NCBI GenBank assembly: GCA_003574685.1
Contig: QOCQ01000008.1
Span: 1-64,000, forward strand
Length of the DNA stretch: 64,000 nucleotides
Direction of reading: 5' to 3'
DNA from: Rhodospirillaceae bacterium SYSU D60007
Lineage (GTDB): Bacteria > Pseudomonadota > Alphaproteobacteria > Reyranellales > Reyranellaceae
Under the pieces are notes generated by a model. It searched no databases and was not told the DNA's origin. It saw nothing but the letters and a program-made list of their open reading frames with translations. The translations under genes were made by a program, and so were the position numbers. Shown piece by piece: positions 15,084 through 38,597 of the stretch (positions within the stretch are counted from its first letter, which is position 1; each line of letters opens with the position of its first letter).

Positions 15084-16304
15084 ATGCACGATGTGCAGTC
15101 GTCCGTTTCGCTTCAGAACTGGCTGATCGCCGAGGGCCTGCGCGGCGTCGGTGACGTCAGGCTGGTGCAGGGGCTCTGTGAGCGGCTCCTGGCGGCGGGC
15201 GTGCAGTTGCTCCGGGTTTTCCTGGGCTCTGACGTTCTGCATCCCACCAAGGAAGCGCGCGCCCTTCGCTGGCGTCGTGGCACCGGCCTTGTCGACACCG
15301 ATGCGGTGCGCGGCGTCAACGAGATTCCAGACGATGCGTGGCGCGCCAGCCCCTTTTACACGATGCTCGAGCACGGGAAGGCCGAGCTGCGCCTGAAGGT
15401 CGATGACGCGGCGCTTGCCGACCGATTTCCCATCCTTTCGGATCTGCGGCAGGAGGGTGCCACCGAGTATGTGGCGTTCCTCGTGCCGCTGGACGGCATG
15501 TTGCGCTTCGGTGAGGTGGAGGAAATCTATACCTCGTTCGCGACCGACCGGCCCGGAGGCTTTCGCGAGTCCGAGATCGCGCTGCTGCGCTCTGTGATGC
15601 CGCCGCTGGCGCTGGCCGTGCATACCCAGCGGATGGGAGTCGCCGGCCGCACCTTGCTTGATACCTATCTGGGCAGCGATGCGGCTGACCGGATCCTTGC
15701 CGGCAATATCGTGCGCGGGCAGGCCGAATCCATCCGCGCGGTGATCTGGTCCAGCGACCTTGCCAACTTCACGCGCGTGGCGGATGAAATTCCGGCGGAC
15801 CAGATGCTGGCGTTGCTGAACGCCTATGCCGAAGTCGTGGTCGACGCCATCGAAACGCGCGGTGGCGACGTGCTGAAGTTTATCGGCGACGGCATTCTGG
15901 CGATCTTTCGCGATGACGAACCCTTCTCTGCCTGCGGGCGGGCATTGGAGGCGGCGCGTGCGATGCTGACCGGTGTTGACGCGCTGAAGGCCCGCCGCCG
16001 GGCCGCCGGCCTGCCGGTGACGGGCGTTACTCTGGCACTACATGTCGGCGAGGTGCTCTACGGCAACTATGGAAGCGCCACGCGGCTTGACTTCACCGTG
16101 CTTGGCCCCGCCGTCAACGAGACCGAGCGTATCGCGGCGCTGAGCCGCTCGATCGACCAGCCGGTGATCATGTCGTCGGCCTTTGCGGTCGAATGCGGTC
16201 CGCGCCGGCGCGAGCTGGTATCGCTGGGCCGCTATGCCCTGCGTGGCGTGGCGCGCCCGCAGGAACTATTTACTTTCGACATCGAAGCTGCCGCTACATC
16301 ATAG
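15084..16304 (+). CDS. Class III adenylate/guanylate cyclase with N-terminal sensory-type domain
   Basis: A 406-residue cytoplasmic nucleotide cyclase, presumably making cAMP. The N-terminal ~185 residues (opening LQNWLIAEGLRGVG and including HPTKEARALRWRRG) form the domain that usually precedes the catalytic part in this alphaproteobacterial subfamily. The catalytic domain shows first metal Asp225 in WSSDLANFT, Lys265 and second metal Asp269 in LKFIGDGI, and the transition-state pair Asn345 and Arg349 in GPAVNETER. I chose the ATG at 15084 because the upstream reading frame is proline-rich and unconserved. The signal sensed is unknown. A HAD-type gene follows after 25 bases and may be cotranscribed. 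Confidence 0.85.
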   Translation: MHDVQSSVSLQNWLIAEGLRGVGDVRLVQGLCERLLAAGVQLLRVFLGSDVLHPTKEARALRWRRGTGLVDTDAVRGVNEIPDDAWRASPFYTMLEHGKAELRLKVDDAALADRFPILSDLRQEGATEYVAFLVPLDGMLRFGEVEEIYTSFATDRPGGFRESEIALLRSVMPPLALAVHTQRMGVAGRTLLDTYLGSDAADRILAGNIVRGQAESIRAVIWSSDLANFTRVADEIPADQMLALLNAYAEVVVDAIETRGGDVLKFIGDGILAIFRDDEPFSACGRALEAARAMLTGVDALKARRRAAGLPVTGVTLALHVGEVLYGNYGSATRLDFTVLGPAVNETERIAALSRSIDQPVIMSSAFAVECGPRRRELVSLGRYALRGVARPQELFTFDIEAAATS

Positions 16305-35882: not shown

Positions 35883-36923
35883 TCAAAGCGCTCGGGTTTC
35901 GCCCAGCCGCATCGCCCAGATGTCCTCGTCGGCATATCCGGCAGCGCGGGCGGCCGTGCGCAAGCGGCGCGGCGGCTCGAAGGCGGGCTCGCCCGACAGC
36001 ACGATGGCGCCGTAGTGCATGCCGGCGATACTGCGTGCCCCCAGCATGCGCGCCATTTCGACCGCCTCCTCAGGCGTGGCATGGCTACGCCGGAAGATCG
36101 GCCGCGGCTCGTAGGCACCGATGCCCAGGATCGCGAGATCGAAGGGACCATGGCGCTGGCCGATCTCGGCGAAGACGGGGCCGAATGCGCTGTCGCCGCC
36201 GAAGTAGAGACGTCTGCCGCCACCCTCCAGCGCAAAGCCACACCATAGCGTGCGGTTGCGATCGAACAGGCCGCGCCCCGAGAAGTGAACGGCCGGCGTC
36301 GCAGTCACCCGCAGCGGCGCGTTGCCGCTTCGACCAAGCATGACCGTGTGATGCCAGTCGACTTCGGTGACGTCGTAGCCCAGCTCGAGCAGCCGCGGGC
36401 CCATGCCGAGCGGCACGACGACGCGTGCGTTGCGCGGGAAGCGCCGGTCCGAAAGTGTGGCAACGTCGAAATGATCGTAGTGGTTGTGCGAGATCAGCAC
36501 GACGTCGAGCGCCGGCAGATCGCTGACCGCAAGGGCCGGCGGCGTGTAGCGGCGAGGACCGAAGCCTTCGATCGGGGCCGCGTAGTCGGCAAGAAACGGA
36601 TCGGTGAGGATTGTGCGTCCGTCGAGCCGGATCAGAAAGCAGGCGTGACCCAGCCAGGTGACGCTGTCTCGGCCCTGATGGCGGCGCAAGCCTTCGCGCA
36701 CGGCGCCGCGCGACAGGACAAACCCTTCAGGTACGGCCGGCCGCCGCGGCACATGACGGGTCAGCCAGAGATAGCGCAGGATCACCCAGAGATGACCCAG
36801 CCCGCCGTGATCCGGTGCGCTGCCGGGCGGGTTGCGAAAGCCGCGCCGCGTGTGATGTGCCGGCCGCGCATCGGCATCGAAACGCGGCTGTGGAAGGCGG
36901 GACGGCTGCACGTCGTCAGGCAT
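35883..36923 (-). CDS. MBL-fold metallohydrolase (UlaG/NAPE-PLD-like)
   Basis: A 346-residue metallo-beta-lactamase-fold hydrolase. The dinuclear metal motif SHNHYDH lies at residues 145-151, preceded by VTWLGHACFLIRLDGRTILTDP, with later ligands in TPAVHFSGR, YFGGDSAFG and MHYGA. The HHTRRGFRNPPGSAPD segment at the N terminus is typical of NAPE-hydrolysing phospholipase-D-like members. That family acts on phospholipids or cyclic phosphodiesters, and no substrate is proven here. I start at the ATG of 36923; the frame extends to 37253 but would overlap the cyclase gene. It follows the cyclase by 41 bases and is probably cotranscribed with it. Confidence 0.82.
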   Translation of the reverse strand: MPDDVQPSRLPQPRFDADARPAHHTRRGFRNPPGSAPDHGGLGHLWVILRYLWLTRHVPRRPAVPEGFVLSRGAVREGLRRHQGRDSVTWLGHACFLIRLDGRTILTDPFLADYAAPIEGFGPRRYTPPALAVSDLPALDVVLISHNHYDHFDVATLSDRRFPRNARVVVPLGMGPRLLELGYDVTEVDWHHTVMLGRSGNAPLRVTATPAVHFSGRGLFDRNRTLWCGFALEGGGRRLYFGGDSAFGPVFAEIGQRHGPFDLAILGIGAYEPRPIFRRSHATPEEAVEMARMLGARSIAGMHYGAIVLSGEPAFEPPRRLRTAARAAGYADEDIWAMRLGETRAL

Positions 36924-36964
36924 ACCCGGCGAAGATGGGGATGCCCGGGTGCCTTTGCCATGAC

Positions 36965-38065
36965 CTACGGCGATTCCCGGCCCGTTCCGGCGGTTCCGCT
37001 GCGGACCTTTGCTGCCTGTTCCTCCAGGTTCTTCGACAGGTCGGGATCGAGTGTCCCGGCGCCCTCTCCGCCTGCCTGATCGCGCTCGAACTGCGCTTCC
37101 TTGTCGAGTTCCTGCGCGATGCGGCGGCGCATGGTGTCCAGCTTTTCGCTGTGCTCCGGCGGCACGCTGCCATAGAGGCACCGCTGGCCGACCACCACGT
37201 AGGGCATGACGAGGATGGGCTGGCTGGCGATGAACTGGTGGCACATGTCGCACAGGACACCGGCGTTACAGGTGCTGCGGCTCAGCAGCCTTTCGAAGCT
37301 GTCGCGGGCCGGCCTGTGCGCCAGCGCGTCGATCCAGATCAGCGGATACTCGCTGTCGTTCAGGATGCCGCGCAGCACCCGTCCCTCATCGACCTGCAGG
37401 TTGAGGCGGTCCATCAGGTGGTAGCGCACCATCATGTCCGCCAGCACGTAGGCGAGCTCCACCGAGACAACGAAGCGGCGCGGCGAGGCCAGCTCCGTCA
37501 GGCGGAAGCCGAGATCGATCGAGGGACCGACGAAGTCGCGCTGGTGCGGCAGGGTATCCCGCTCGAAGCGCGCGATGCGCAGCAGGGTCGCGTCGTCCTG
37601 CGACTCGCCTTCCGCCGCATAGGAGCCGACCAGCGGGATCTCCTTGTTCATGTTGGGAAAGCCCGCCAGCCATGCTGTTGCCTTCAGACGCAGGCGTCCG
37701 CCGCTGCGCCGCTGCAAATCGTCATCCTGCTGCGCCAGCACATCCTTGAACGCCAGCACGGCACTCAGGCACTGCAGCGGATGGGTGATCTCCTTGACGA
37801 ACAGCAGCTCATCGCCGGCGGACTTCCAGAATACCGGCTCGGGCCCCGGTGTCGCCTCCGGCAGGTCATGGCGGTAGCGGTCGGAGACGCGCAGCCAGCT
37901 TCGCGCCACCGCCGCCTGCGTCTCGATGTAGAACCAGTGAATGATCGGCAGCCACGCCTCGATCTTGTCGGAGGCCGGCTGATACTTGAACGACGTCGAG
38001 CCCTGGATGTCGAAGCTGAGGAACAGCCGAAGCCGCGGCGTCAGGAAATCGTACGGCTCCGGCAT
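36965..38065 (-). CDS. Divergent class III nucleotidyl cyclase with C-terminal Cys cluster
   Basis: A 366-residue protein I identify as a class III cyclase from its active-site residues. Metal Asp19 is in SFDIQGST, Lys81 and metal Asp85 in FWKSAGDELLF, and Asp177, Asp184 and Arg188 in DFVGPSIDLGFRL. Aligned with mammalian adenylyl cyclase, these fit both metal Asps, the adenine-selecting Lys and Asp, and the transition-state Arg; the transition-state Asn position is Asp184. The N-terminal domain is therefore probably active on ATP, though altered. Residues 266-276 form C-X5-C-X2-C-H, a possible metal site, followed by a charged tail. No membrane segment. It lies 22 bases after the ImmA/IrrE gene. 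Not a match to any named family I can recall in full, so the function is inferred. Confidence 0.7.
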   Translation of the reverse strand: MPEPYDFLTPRLRLFLSFDIQGSTSFKYQPASDKIEAWLPIIHWFYIETQAAVARSWLRVSDRYRHDLPEATPGPEPVFWKSAGDELLFVKEITHPLQCLSAVLAFKDVLAQQDDDLQRRSGGRLRLKATAWLAGFPNMNKEIPLVGSYAAEGESQDDATLLRIARFERDTLPHQRDFVGPSIDLGFRLTELASPRRFVVSVELAYVLADMMVRYHLMDRLNLQVDEGRVLRGILNDSEYPLIWIDALAHRPARDSFERLLSRSTCNAGVLCDMCHQFIASQPILVMPYVVVGQRCLYGSVPPEHSEKLDTMRRRIAQELDKEAQFERDQAGGEGAGTLDPDLSKNLEEQAAKVRSGTAGTGRESP

Positions 38066-38087
38066 AAAAGGACGCGGGTGAGGGGTG

Positions 38088-38597
38088 TCAGACCAGCCCG
38101 AGGCCCTTCGCCCGGATCGTCGCGGCGCGGGTCGAGACGCCGAACAGGGCTGCGATCTTCTCCGCGTGGCCGTTCCAGGCCTGCCAGGCTTCGCGGAACT
38201 GCGCCGACGGCATCAGCAGGCCGGCCGCGAACCAGTTGGCTTCCCACTCCACCCGATCGCTGCCGTACCGCTTGGCGGCCATGGGCGCGCAGCAGCGCGG
38301 GAAATGCAGGAAGTAATGGCCAAGCTCGTGGGCGATCGTGAAGCGGTCGCGTGCTGCGCCAGTATAGGCAGGGAGCGTAATGGTGAACCTGCCCTGGCAC
38401 TCCACGACAATGGAGCCGTCGTCGAAATCCGCGTCGTCCAGCGGCTTGTAGCAGACCTTGCCGCCCAGCCGCTCGACCAGCGGCTCCAGCGGCTCACCCG
38501 GCTGCAGACCCGCATCGCAGGCGAACTTCTCGGCCGCAGCGATAATGGCCGCCTTGCTGGCGTTGCAGGGTGAGGGCGAGGCGTGCTCGGCGCTCAT
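38088..38597 (-). CDS. ImmA/IrrE family metallopeptidase
   Basis: A 169-residue zinc peptidase of the ImmA/IrrE (COG2856) family. The zinc motif AHELGHYFLH spans residues 89-98, and the third ligand region is EWEANWFAAGLLMP near 117-130. A C-terminal LFGVSTRAATIRAKGLG is the usual final helix pair. Relatives cleave repressors (ImmA, IrrE/PprI) in response to stress or DNA damage, frequently in mobile or defence loci. The 38597 ATG is chosen because the frame to 38687 adds unconserved residues. It is the first gene of a putative operon with the cyclase and the MBL hydrolase, 111 bases downstream of purH. There is no adjacent repressor, so its substrate may be the cyclase or an unlinked protein. 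Confidence 0.85.
   Translation of the reverse strand: MSAEHASPSPCNASKAAIIAAAEKFACDAGLQPGEPLEPLVERLGGKVCYKPLDDADFDDGSIVVECQGRFTITLPAYTGAARDRFTIAHELGHYFLHFPRCCAPMAAKRYGSDRVEWEANWFAAGLLMPSAQFREAWQAWNGHAEKIAALFGVSTRAATIRAKGLGLV

What the first reader, a model, noticed from the sequence alone, without database searches (positions are those of the whole stretch)
35883..38597. Compact ImmA/IrrE peptidase - nucleotidyl cyclase - MBL hydrolase cassette
Three minus-strand genes with gaps of 22 and 41 bases encode a zinc peptidase of the repressor-cleaving ImmA/IrrE family, a divergent class III cyclase, and an MBL-fold hydrolase with an intact SHNHYDH motif. Established knowledge: cyclic-nucleotide signals drive several bacterial defence systems, MBL-fold enzymes can degrade or act on cyclic phosphodiesters or lipids, and IrrE/ImmA proteases transduce stress. 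Inference: the cassette makes a nucleotide signal, removes it or responds to it, and uses proteolysis for control. It lies directly after purH with no phage genes.
Basis: partly seen in the sequence, partly recalled or inferred. Interest (0 to 1): 0.72.

Follow-up and report, generated by a model that had tools for sequence, protein, structure and literature searches.

The report
Mobile ImmA–nucleotide-cyclase gene pair
Next to purH this bacterium carries a two-gene unit, a zinc-peptidase-like ImmA protein plus a divergent enzyme of the adenylate-cyclase fold, that recurs on phages, plasmids and chromosomes of several bacterial phyla and looks like an undescribed cyclic-nucleotide stress or anti-phage signalling module; the third gene of the original finding is a bystander.

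Summary
The three genes exist as described, but the conserved unit is two genes. The middle protein has no meaningful Pfam, NCBIfam or PADLOC hit, yet a confident model (pLDDT 89.5) has the class III nucleotidyl-cyclase fold (Z about 15). Asp19, Asp85, Asp184 and Arg188 are invariant in 77 of 77 family members and Lys81 is kept in 76; an Asp stands where canonical cyclases have Asn. ImmA lies directly upstream in 63 of 79 sequence clusters, in Proteobacteria, Verrucomicrobiota, Spirochaetota and Planctomycetota, and on phages and plasmids (phiC2, phiCD27, LE1; Leptospira, Tistrella, Mycolicibacterium). The MBL gene is beside it only in the window and one congener; another congener has the pair at purH without it. 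Three of 103 ImmA copies lack the HE of HExxH and one Caulobacteraceae clade has lost ImmA, while the cyclases checked keep both metal Asp, Asp184 and Arg188 wherever the sequence reaches them. I read the cyclase as the output enzyme, probably ATP-using, and ImmA as its regulator. Phage defence is plausible but untested. Not filed as Pycsar: no cyclic-nucleotide receptor was found beside it. Ten paper searches showed no description of the pair.

The parts
38088..38597 (-). ImmA/IrrE (M78) zinc peptidase-like protein, 169 aa, no HTH domain found; first gene of the pair
   Evidence: Pfam PF06114 2e-20; PADLOC best model capP 2.6e-27; His90, Glu91, His94 and Glu117 invariant in the 11-row alignment
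38316..38330 (-). HELGH zinc-binding/catalytic motif of ImmA (residues 90-94)
   Evidence: sequence; HExxH kept in 100 of 103 partner copies, with Glu117 in 98 of these 100 and Asp in 2
36965..38065 (-). divergent class III nucleotidyl-cyclase-fold protein, 366 aa; cyclase domain about residues 5-251, helical C-terminal part 252-366
   Evidence: AF2 pLDDT 89.5, pTM 0.87; VIA Z 15.6 to 7pdd (rmsd 2.8, 188 aligned) and 15.4 to 3r5g (rmsd 2.8, 183 aligned); hhalign prob 89.9 to canonical cyclases
37994..38023 (-). motif FLSFDIQGST, metal-binding Asp19 (38009-38011)
   Evidence: Asp19 in 77 of 77
37808..37828 (-). motif WKSAGDE: Trp80, base-contact Lys81 and metal-binding Asp85
   Evidence: Lys81 76 of 77, Asp85 77 of 77; register by hhalign
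37502..37537 (-). motif DFVGPSIDLGFR: Asp177 (adenine-type Asp), Asp184 in place of the canonical Asn, Arg188
   Evidence: 73 of 77 (other 4 Glu), 77 of 77, 77 of 77
35883..36923 (-). MBL-fold hydrolase, 346 aa: adjacent bystander, not part of the conserved unit
   Evidence: Lactamase_B_2 6.9e-41; beside the pair only in the window and Vineibacter

Best explanation
A mobile two-gene signalling module: (1) a divergent class III nucleotidyl cyclase and (2) an ImmA-type partner encoded just ahead of it. The cyclase turns a nucleotide, most likely ATP, into a cyclic mononucleotide; ImmA is its regulator. On stress, probably phage infection or DNA damage, ImmA clips or releases the cyclase (in most lineages as an active protease, in a few as a pure binding partner), the cyclase fires, and the product acts on host receptors. 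Mobile elements carry it as a stress or anti-phage switch; it has settled near purH in this genus and, without ImmA, in Caulobacteraceae. Shown by computation: gene pairing, cyclase fold, active-site conservation, presence on phages and plasmids, loss pattern. Inferred: activity, substrate, direction of control, trigger, receptor, defence role.
For: Pairing: ImmA directly upstream in 86 of 114 loci, 63 of 79 clusters at 70% identity, and in 19 of 25 genes from an even sample of 398 genomes of the phylum, counting window and G005; median gap 3.5 bases, 35 of 86 overlap, 10 of them by 4 bases (start codons chosen by my script). ImmA and cyclase distances correlate, r 0.65, best of 1000 shuffles 0.19 (62 pairs). 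Fold. Active site; Asp19, Lys81, Asp85, Asp184, Arg188 also in 22 of 22 further loci that reach the N-terminus. Regulator rather than effector: the HE of HExxH is lost in 3 of 103 copies (L042, L056, L162) beside cyclases with intact catalytic residues; a solo clade of 9 rows (SH-aLRT 100) nests inside paired lineages and keeps them too, with Glu at 177 in three. No third gene recurs in more than 6 of 79 loci. Mobility: phages phiC2, phiCD27, LE1; Leptospira, Tistrella, Mycolicibacterium plasmids; 21 loci on viral contigs, 19 paired.
Against: No activity data. Asp184 replaces the Asn of canonical class III cyclases, so product and rate are uncertain. Mobile elements carry many things besides defence; no PADLOC model matches the cyclase part with strength, and flanks were not compared with a control. 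Only three copies lack HE, one of them a weak match (L162, 3.5e-14), and 100 of 103 keep HExxH, as an effector protease would. The read-through fusion model gives pTM 0.74, which neither proves nor excludes an ImmA-cyclase complex. Regulation by ImmA rests on the loss pattern alone.
Confidence: 0.5

Rival explanations
1. Pycsar-like order: the cyclase senses the phage and makes the signal, and ImmA is the effector, a protease that the signal turns on to cut host or phage proteins.
For: Cyclase plus neighbouring effector is the layout of Pycsar (PMC11224242, passages). 100 of 103 ImmA copies keep HExxH. No other candidate effector recurs.
Against: Three ImmA copies have lost the HE of HExxH beside an intact cyclase; solo cyclases exist without ImmA; this ImmA is a bare 169-aa peptidase domain, no nucleotide-binding domain in Pfam.
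Confidence: 0.2
2. Toxin-antitoxin-like addiction pair: the cyclase harms the cell (nucleotide drain or cyclic nucleotide) and ImmA neutralises it.
For: Two close, often overlapping genes, partner first, on plasmids and phages; ImmA-type proteases with Xre partners were listed as TA-like operons, with phages phiC2 and LE1 named (PMC2701414, passages).
Against: Cyclases live without ImmA on Caulobacteraceae chromosomes.
Confidence: 0.15
3. Ordinary host regulation: one more cyclase feeding the cell's cAMP pool under ImmA stress control, with no link to phages.
For: The pair lies near purH in the window and two congeners; the genome has 29 matches to the canonical class III cyclase family; GC as flanks.
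Against: Patchy presence: 5 of 61 relatives, absent from the fourth congener searched (G002, 87% complete), 21 of 398 genomes of the phylum; repeated occurrence on phages and plasmids.
Confidence: 0.12
4. First reader's three-gene cassette in which the MBL enzyme degrades or answers the signal.
For: 41-base gap, same strand.
Against: MBL beside the pair only in the window and one Vineibacter locus; absent from the Reyranella congener that has the pair at purH.
Confidence: 0.03

Closest known systems
[quoted passage not shown]
   Same: Compact operon with a class III-fold cyclase; a uridylate cyclase (8jsz) is among the structural matches.
   Different: No CNBD-TIR or transmembrane effector found beside it; partner is an ImmA peptidase. 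Lys81/Asp177 are of the adenine-selecting type (that reading is recalled); Pycsar cyclases use other base-selecting residues (PMC11224242, passages), whose positions were not mapped onto this family here.
CapP/CapH control of CBASS, IrrE/DdrO and ImmA/ImmR pairs
   Same: Zinc peptidase of the same family; capP is the best PADLOC model (2.6e-27).
   Different: No HTH repressor or CD-NTase among the genes scanned beside it; the partner gene is a class III-fold cyclase. (That CapP cleaves CapH and answers ssDNA is recalled; the paper was not held.)
Canonical class III adenylyl cyclases (CyaC, CyaB, Rv1900c)
   Same: Fold, two metal Asp, Lys, Asp, Arg, LKG strand.
   Different: No Pfam hit for the window copy; GDE instead of GDA/GDG, Asp for the usual Asn, GFR for A-x-R, C-terminal helical part, operon with ImmA.
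PHROGs phrog_18024 and phrog_6174 (unknown function)
   Same: Same protein family: 77 of 77 and 74 of 77 members match.
   Different: PHROGs gives no function; the ImmA partner and the cyclase fold are shown here.

Membership tests
Class III nucleotidyl cyclase fold | cyclase-homology-domain fold | tested here: met
   Foldseek 4.9e-8 to 1wc0; VIA Z 15.6, rmsd 2.8, 188 aligned to 7pdd
Class III nucleotidyl cyclase fold | two metal-binding Asp | tested here: met
   Asp19, Asp85 in 77 of 77, register by hhalign
Class III nucleotidyl cyclase fold | Lys/Asp adenine pair and catalytic Arg | tested here: met
   Lys81 76/77, Asp177 73/77, Arg188 77/77; roles of the residues recalled
Canonical class III active site | Asn in the VNxAxR motif | tested here: not met
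   Asp184 in 77 of 77. Rv1900c has His there in a weak HMMER alignment (E 0.4), so the Asn does not define the fold family; filed as divergent class III-fold, not canonical
Class III nucleotidyl cyclase fold | enzymatic activity | not testable with these tools
   needs assay
ImmA/IrrE (M78) peptidase | M78 domain with HExxH and downstream Glu | tested here: met
   Pfam 73.3 bits over cut-off 22; His90, Glu91, His94, Glu117
Pycsar | cyclic-nucleotide receptor/effector gene beside the cyclase | tested here: not met
   Pfam on the window neighbours gives ImmA, MBL, purH, a methionine-synthase-like and a PALP-family gene, no CNBD; no third gene in more than 6 of 79 loci (706 flank ORFs)
Pycsar | match to a PADLOC Pycsar cyclase model | tested here: inconclusive
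   none of the 3 PADLOC lines for 77 members at E 0.1 is named Pycsar; I did not check that the library holds such a model
CBASS with CapP/CapH | CD-NTase and CapH beside CapP | tested here: not met
   absent among the six window genes scanned with Pfam and the three with PADLOC
Toxin-antitoxin pair | one toxic and one neutralising partner | not testable with these tools
   needs expression test; solo cyclases argue against

The most novel reading that the evidence does not exclude
A new cyclic-mononucleotide immune system: a phage-borne and plasmid-borne cyclase of class III fold with an Asp-for-Asn active site, making an adenine (or unusual) cyclic nucleotide under the control of an ImmA partner that has more than once decayed from protease to pseudo-protease, the cyclase itself later being domesticated as a solo host gene.
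Probability: 0.35. Interest if true: 0.85.

Novelty: new variant of a known kind. Interest (0 to 1): 0.66.

Why it matters
It links two well-known parts of bacterial stress and immune signalling, cyclic-nucleotide synthesis and ImmA/IrrE proteolysis, in one portable two-gene unit whose cyclase is annotated only as a hypothetical or unnamed protein in the phages phiC2, phiCD27 and LE1. Its small size makes it easy to test for phage protection and product identity, and the pseudo-protease and solo lineages give natural controls for what ImmA does.

Tried and rejected
Three-gene cassette: rejected, MBL was found beside the pair only in the window and Vineibacter. Pycsar or CBASS membership: not filed, for lack of the receptor gene or CD-NTase. 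A third conserved gene: the recurring flank families (blastp 1e-8, ORFs of 90 aa or more, at most 6 of 79 loci) are mostly Caulobacterales synteny, plus an integrase family in 4 loci (three members confirmed by Pfam) and a histidine kinase in 3 (one confirmed). Defence-island context: 127 of the 307 flank ORFs listed were scanned; Phage_integrase in 5 of 127, single matches to type I, III and IIG methyltransferase, DruA and RmrA models (only the first 25 of 117 and of 67 families are shown), no control made, so not used as proof. ImmA-cyclase complex by folding a natural read-through chain: pTM 0.74, inconclusive because the short linker itself holds the parts together. Promoters and terminators: none found, uninformative. 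GC anomaly: none. The first mixed alignment A5 was discarded because MAFFT laid cyclase N-termini on ImmA. The script tested the wrong Glu; one search repeats the count: 98 of 103 copies (90 distinct sequences) have His, Glu, His and Glu117, L155 and L156 have Asp for Glu117, and L042, L056, L162 lack the HE. L057, counted solo, has an upstream ORF with a marginal ImmA resemblance (E 0.0016 as a search of one sequence). Searches of other representatives against phages and plasmids gave the same 7 and 7 records.

Sampling limits: the genome scan needed one of two motifs, so relatives lacking both would be missed; best 80 of 219 were kept. Loci overlap between searches (L002/L014, L003/L015, L005/L034, L011/L101; several even-sample loci are contigs of the genome scan), so cluster counts are given. 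Rows dropped: L068 and L074 (broken cyclase frames) from A3 and the tree; L091 and L094 (contig ends) in the tree but ungrouped; L107 and the plasmid/phage-record rows from A4.
Full report
Observation. The three minus-strand ORFs are real at the stated places, with gaps of 22 and 41 bases, next to purH. ImmA (169 aa) scores 73.3 bits to Peptidase_M78 (cut-off 22); the MBL protein scores 6.9e-41 to Lactamase_B_2 and holds SHNHYDH. The 366-aa middle protein has no Pfam hit up to E 1, one chance-level NCBIfam line (0.15), and no PADLOC or PDB sequence match, so 'class III cyclase' had to be tested.

The middle protein is a class III-fold cyclase. From an alignment of 76 sequences AlphaFold2 gives pLDDT 89.5 and pTM 0.87. 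Foldseek's best PDB matches are class III cyclases (CyaC 1wc0, 4.9e-8; uridylate cyclase 8jsz at rank 34, 5.3e-6); VIA-align gives Z 15.6 to adenylyl cyclase 9 (7pdd, rmsd 2.8, 188 aligned) and Z 15.4 to CyaB (3r5g, rmsd 2.8, 183 aligned), mostly over residues 5-251. A profile comparison with 19 canonical cyclases picked from the 29 family matches of the same genome gives probability 89.9, E 1.7e-6, and fixes the register: Asp19 and Asp85 on the metal ligands, Lys81 on the Lys of K-x-x-G-D, Asp177 on the Asp before the VN motif, Asp184 on the Asn, Arg188 on the Arg. Across 77 members, window included: Asp19 77, Lys81 76, Asp85 77, Asp177 73 (four Glu), Asp184 77, Arg188 77. In the 25 further loci, three do not reach the N-terminus; the other 22 keep Asp19, Lys81, Asp85, Asp184 and Arg188 (Asp177 in 20, Glu in 2). 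Loci of the genome and viral scans were found by either of two motifs, one with GDE and one with the GPxxD stretch, so those columns are partly selected; Asp19 lies in neither. That the Lys/Asp pair selects adenine is recalled knowledge; it suggests ATP, with the Asn-to-Asp change as a caution.

The unit is ImmA plus cyclase. ImmA lies directly upstream on the same strand in 86 of 114 loci and 63 of 79 clusters at 70% identity. Of the 28 loci without it, L070, L091 and L094 end at contig edges, L074 has ImmA but a split cyclase frame, 20 belong to the Caulobacteraceae-type group and L008, L028, L057 and L112 stand apart. In an even sample of 398 genomes of the window's phylum (Pseudomonadota, judged from its named relatives), 21 carry the family at E 1e-10; of their 25 genes, 19 have ImmA upstream (17 of 23 fetched, plus window and G005); the six without are two from one genome (L145, L158), one broken (L154), one at a contig end (L159), one fragment (L165) and L166. 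Among 61 near relatives the cyclase is found in 5, the window included. The own genome has two matches to the ImmA profile, one weak, so chance adjacency would be far under 1% per locus (inference). Distances of the two proteins correlate (r 0.65 over 62 pairs; best of 1000 shuffles 0.19), which also follows from common inheritance.

The MBL gene is a bystander. A phmmer search finds it in 3 of 114 loci: the window and one Vineibacter locus held twice. In the Reyranella congener the pair abuts purH and no MBL relative lies within the 18 kb held; in Vineibacter the order is methionine-synthase-like gene, MBL, cyclase, ImmA, then about 4.3 kb (a prolyl-oligopeptidase-family gene among it), then purH.

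Where it travels. Plasmids with a match: four Leptospira records, Tistrella, Sphingomonas, Mycolicibacterium; of the five fetched, four are paired and Sphingomonas is solo. Phages with a match: Leptospira LE1 and Clostridioides phiC2 and phiCD27; in the two Clostridioides phages the pair is annotated metallo-protease and hypothetical protein and lies between integrase and endolysin/holin genes, in phiC2 also near an AbiF-like gene. Viral contigs: 21 loci, 19 paired. Genomes: 219 relatives in the species-level collection, best 80 kept. Makarova et al. 2009 names phiC2 and LE1 among phages with COG2856-Xre operons; none of the passages shown mentions this cyclase (PMC2701414, passages).

Who controls whom. 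Of 103 ImmA copies (90 distinct sequences), 98 have His, Glu, His and Glu117, two have Asp for Glu117, and L042, L056 and L162 lack the HE of HExxH; the cyclase beside each of these three has its catalytic residues. In the tree, 62 paired and 13 solo rows need 5 changes; nine Caulobacteraceae-type rows form one clade (SH-aLRT 100) nested among paired lineages. In the wider group of 20 such loci, 19 hold a phosphoribosyltransferase gene that I read as pyrE (name recalled; Pfam Pribosyltran 7e-16 in L045), in 14 of them the next gene upstream. They keep the catalytic residues, with Glu at 177 in three of the nine. So the cyclase can do without ImmA or its protease motif, while I saw no cyclase that reaches those positions and lacks Asp19, Asp85, Asp184 or Arg188. 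This favours ImmA as regulator, by cleavage or binding, over ImmA as effector. Against: few such copies, one weakly matched, and the great majority keep HExxH. C-terminal NUDIX-like parts in L107 and L160 (Pfam), and a PDC-S07 match at the same place in phiCD27's protein L012, where Pfam finds nothing, point to a variable C-terminal sensor or nucleotide-handling part. Folding a natural read-through ImmA-cyclase chain gave pTM 0.74, inconclusive.

Novelty. Ten searches of the paper library for ImmA/IrrE with cyclase, Pycsar, CBASS, LE1, phiC2 and related words (listings seen, and passages of PMC11224242, PMC2701414, PMC9887734 and PMC10952713) showed no description of the pair; subscription papers and preprints are mostly not in that library, so this is weak evidence. 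I file it as a new variant of cyclase-based signalling modules: like Pycsar in outline, not shown to be a member of it.

Noticed in passing
L012:4830-6416, L107:5914-7359, L160:1935-3404: Family members with a C-terminal extra domain: PADLOC PDC-S07 in all three, Pfam NUDIX 1.5e-4 in L107 and 1.3e-7 in L160, no Pfam hit in L012.
   Followed up: partly
L039, L045, L046, L051, L053, L058, L059, L085, L090: Solo cyclase clade of Caulobacteraceae type, mostly beside a phosphoribosyltransferase (pyrE-like) gene, in L085 also next to a RelA/SpoT gene: looks like domestication after loss of ImmA.
   Followed up: partly
L042:5342-5959, L056:5319-5954, L162:937-1626: ImmA copies lacking the HE of HExxH: apparent pseudo-peptidases kept beside an intact cyclase.
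   Followed up: yes
G000 (whole genome); one at window 15744-16247: 29 matches to the canonical class III cyclase family PF00211 in one 5.3-Mb genome, one of them inside the window.
   Followed up: no
L009:1761-8322: Mycolicibacterium plasmid: the pair sits with a second ImmA gene, a DUF5131 (Gp37/Gp68) gene plus tcmP, and a Mov34/MPN gene, possibly a defence cluster.
   Followed up: partly
L068, L074, L154: Cyclase genes with the reading frame broken; ImmA still present in L068 and L074.
   Followed up: no
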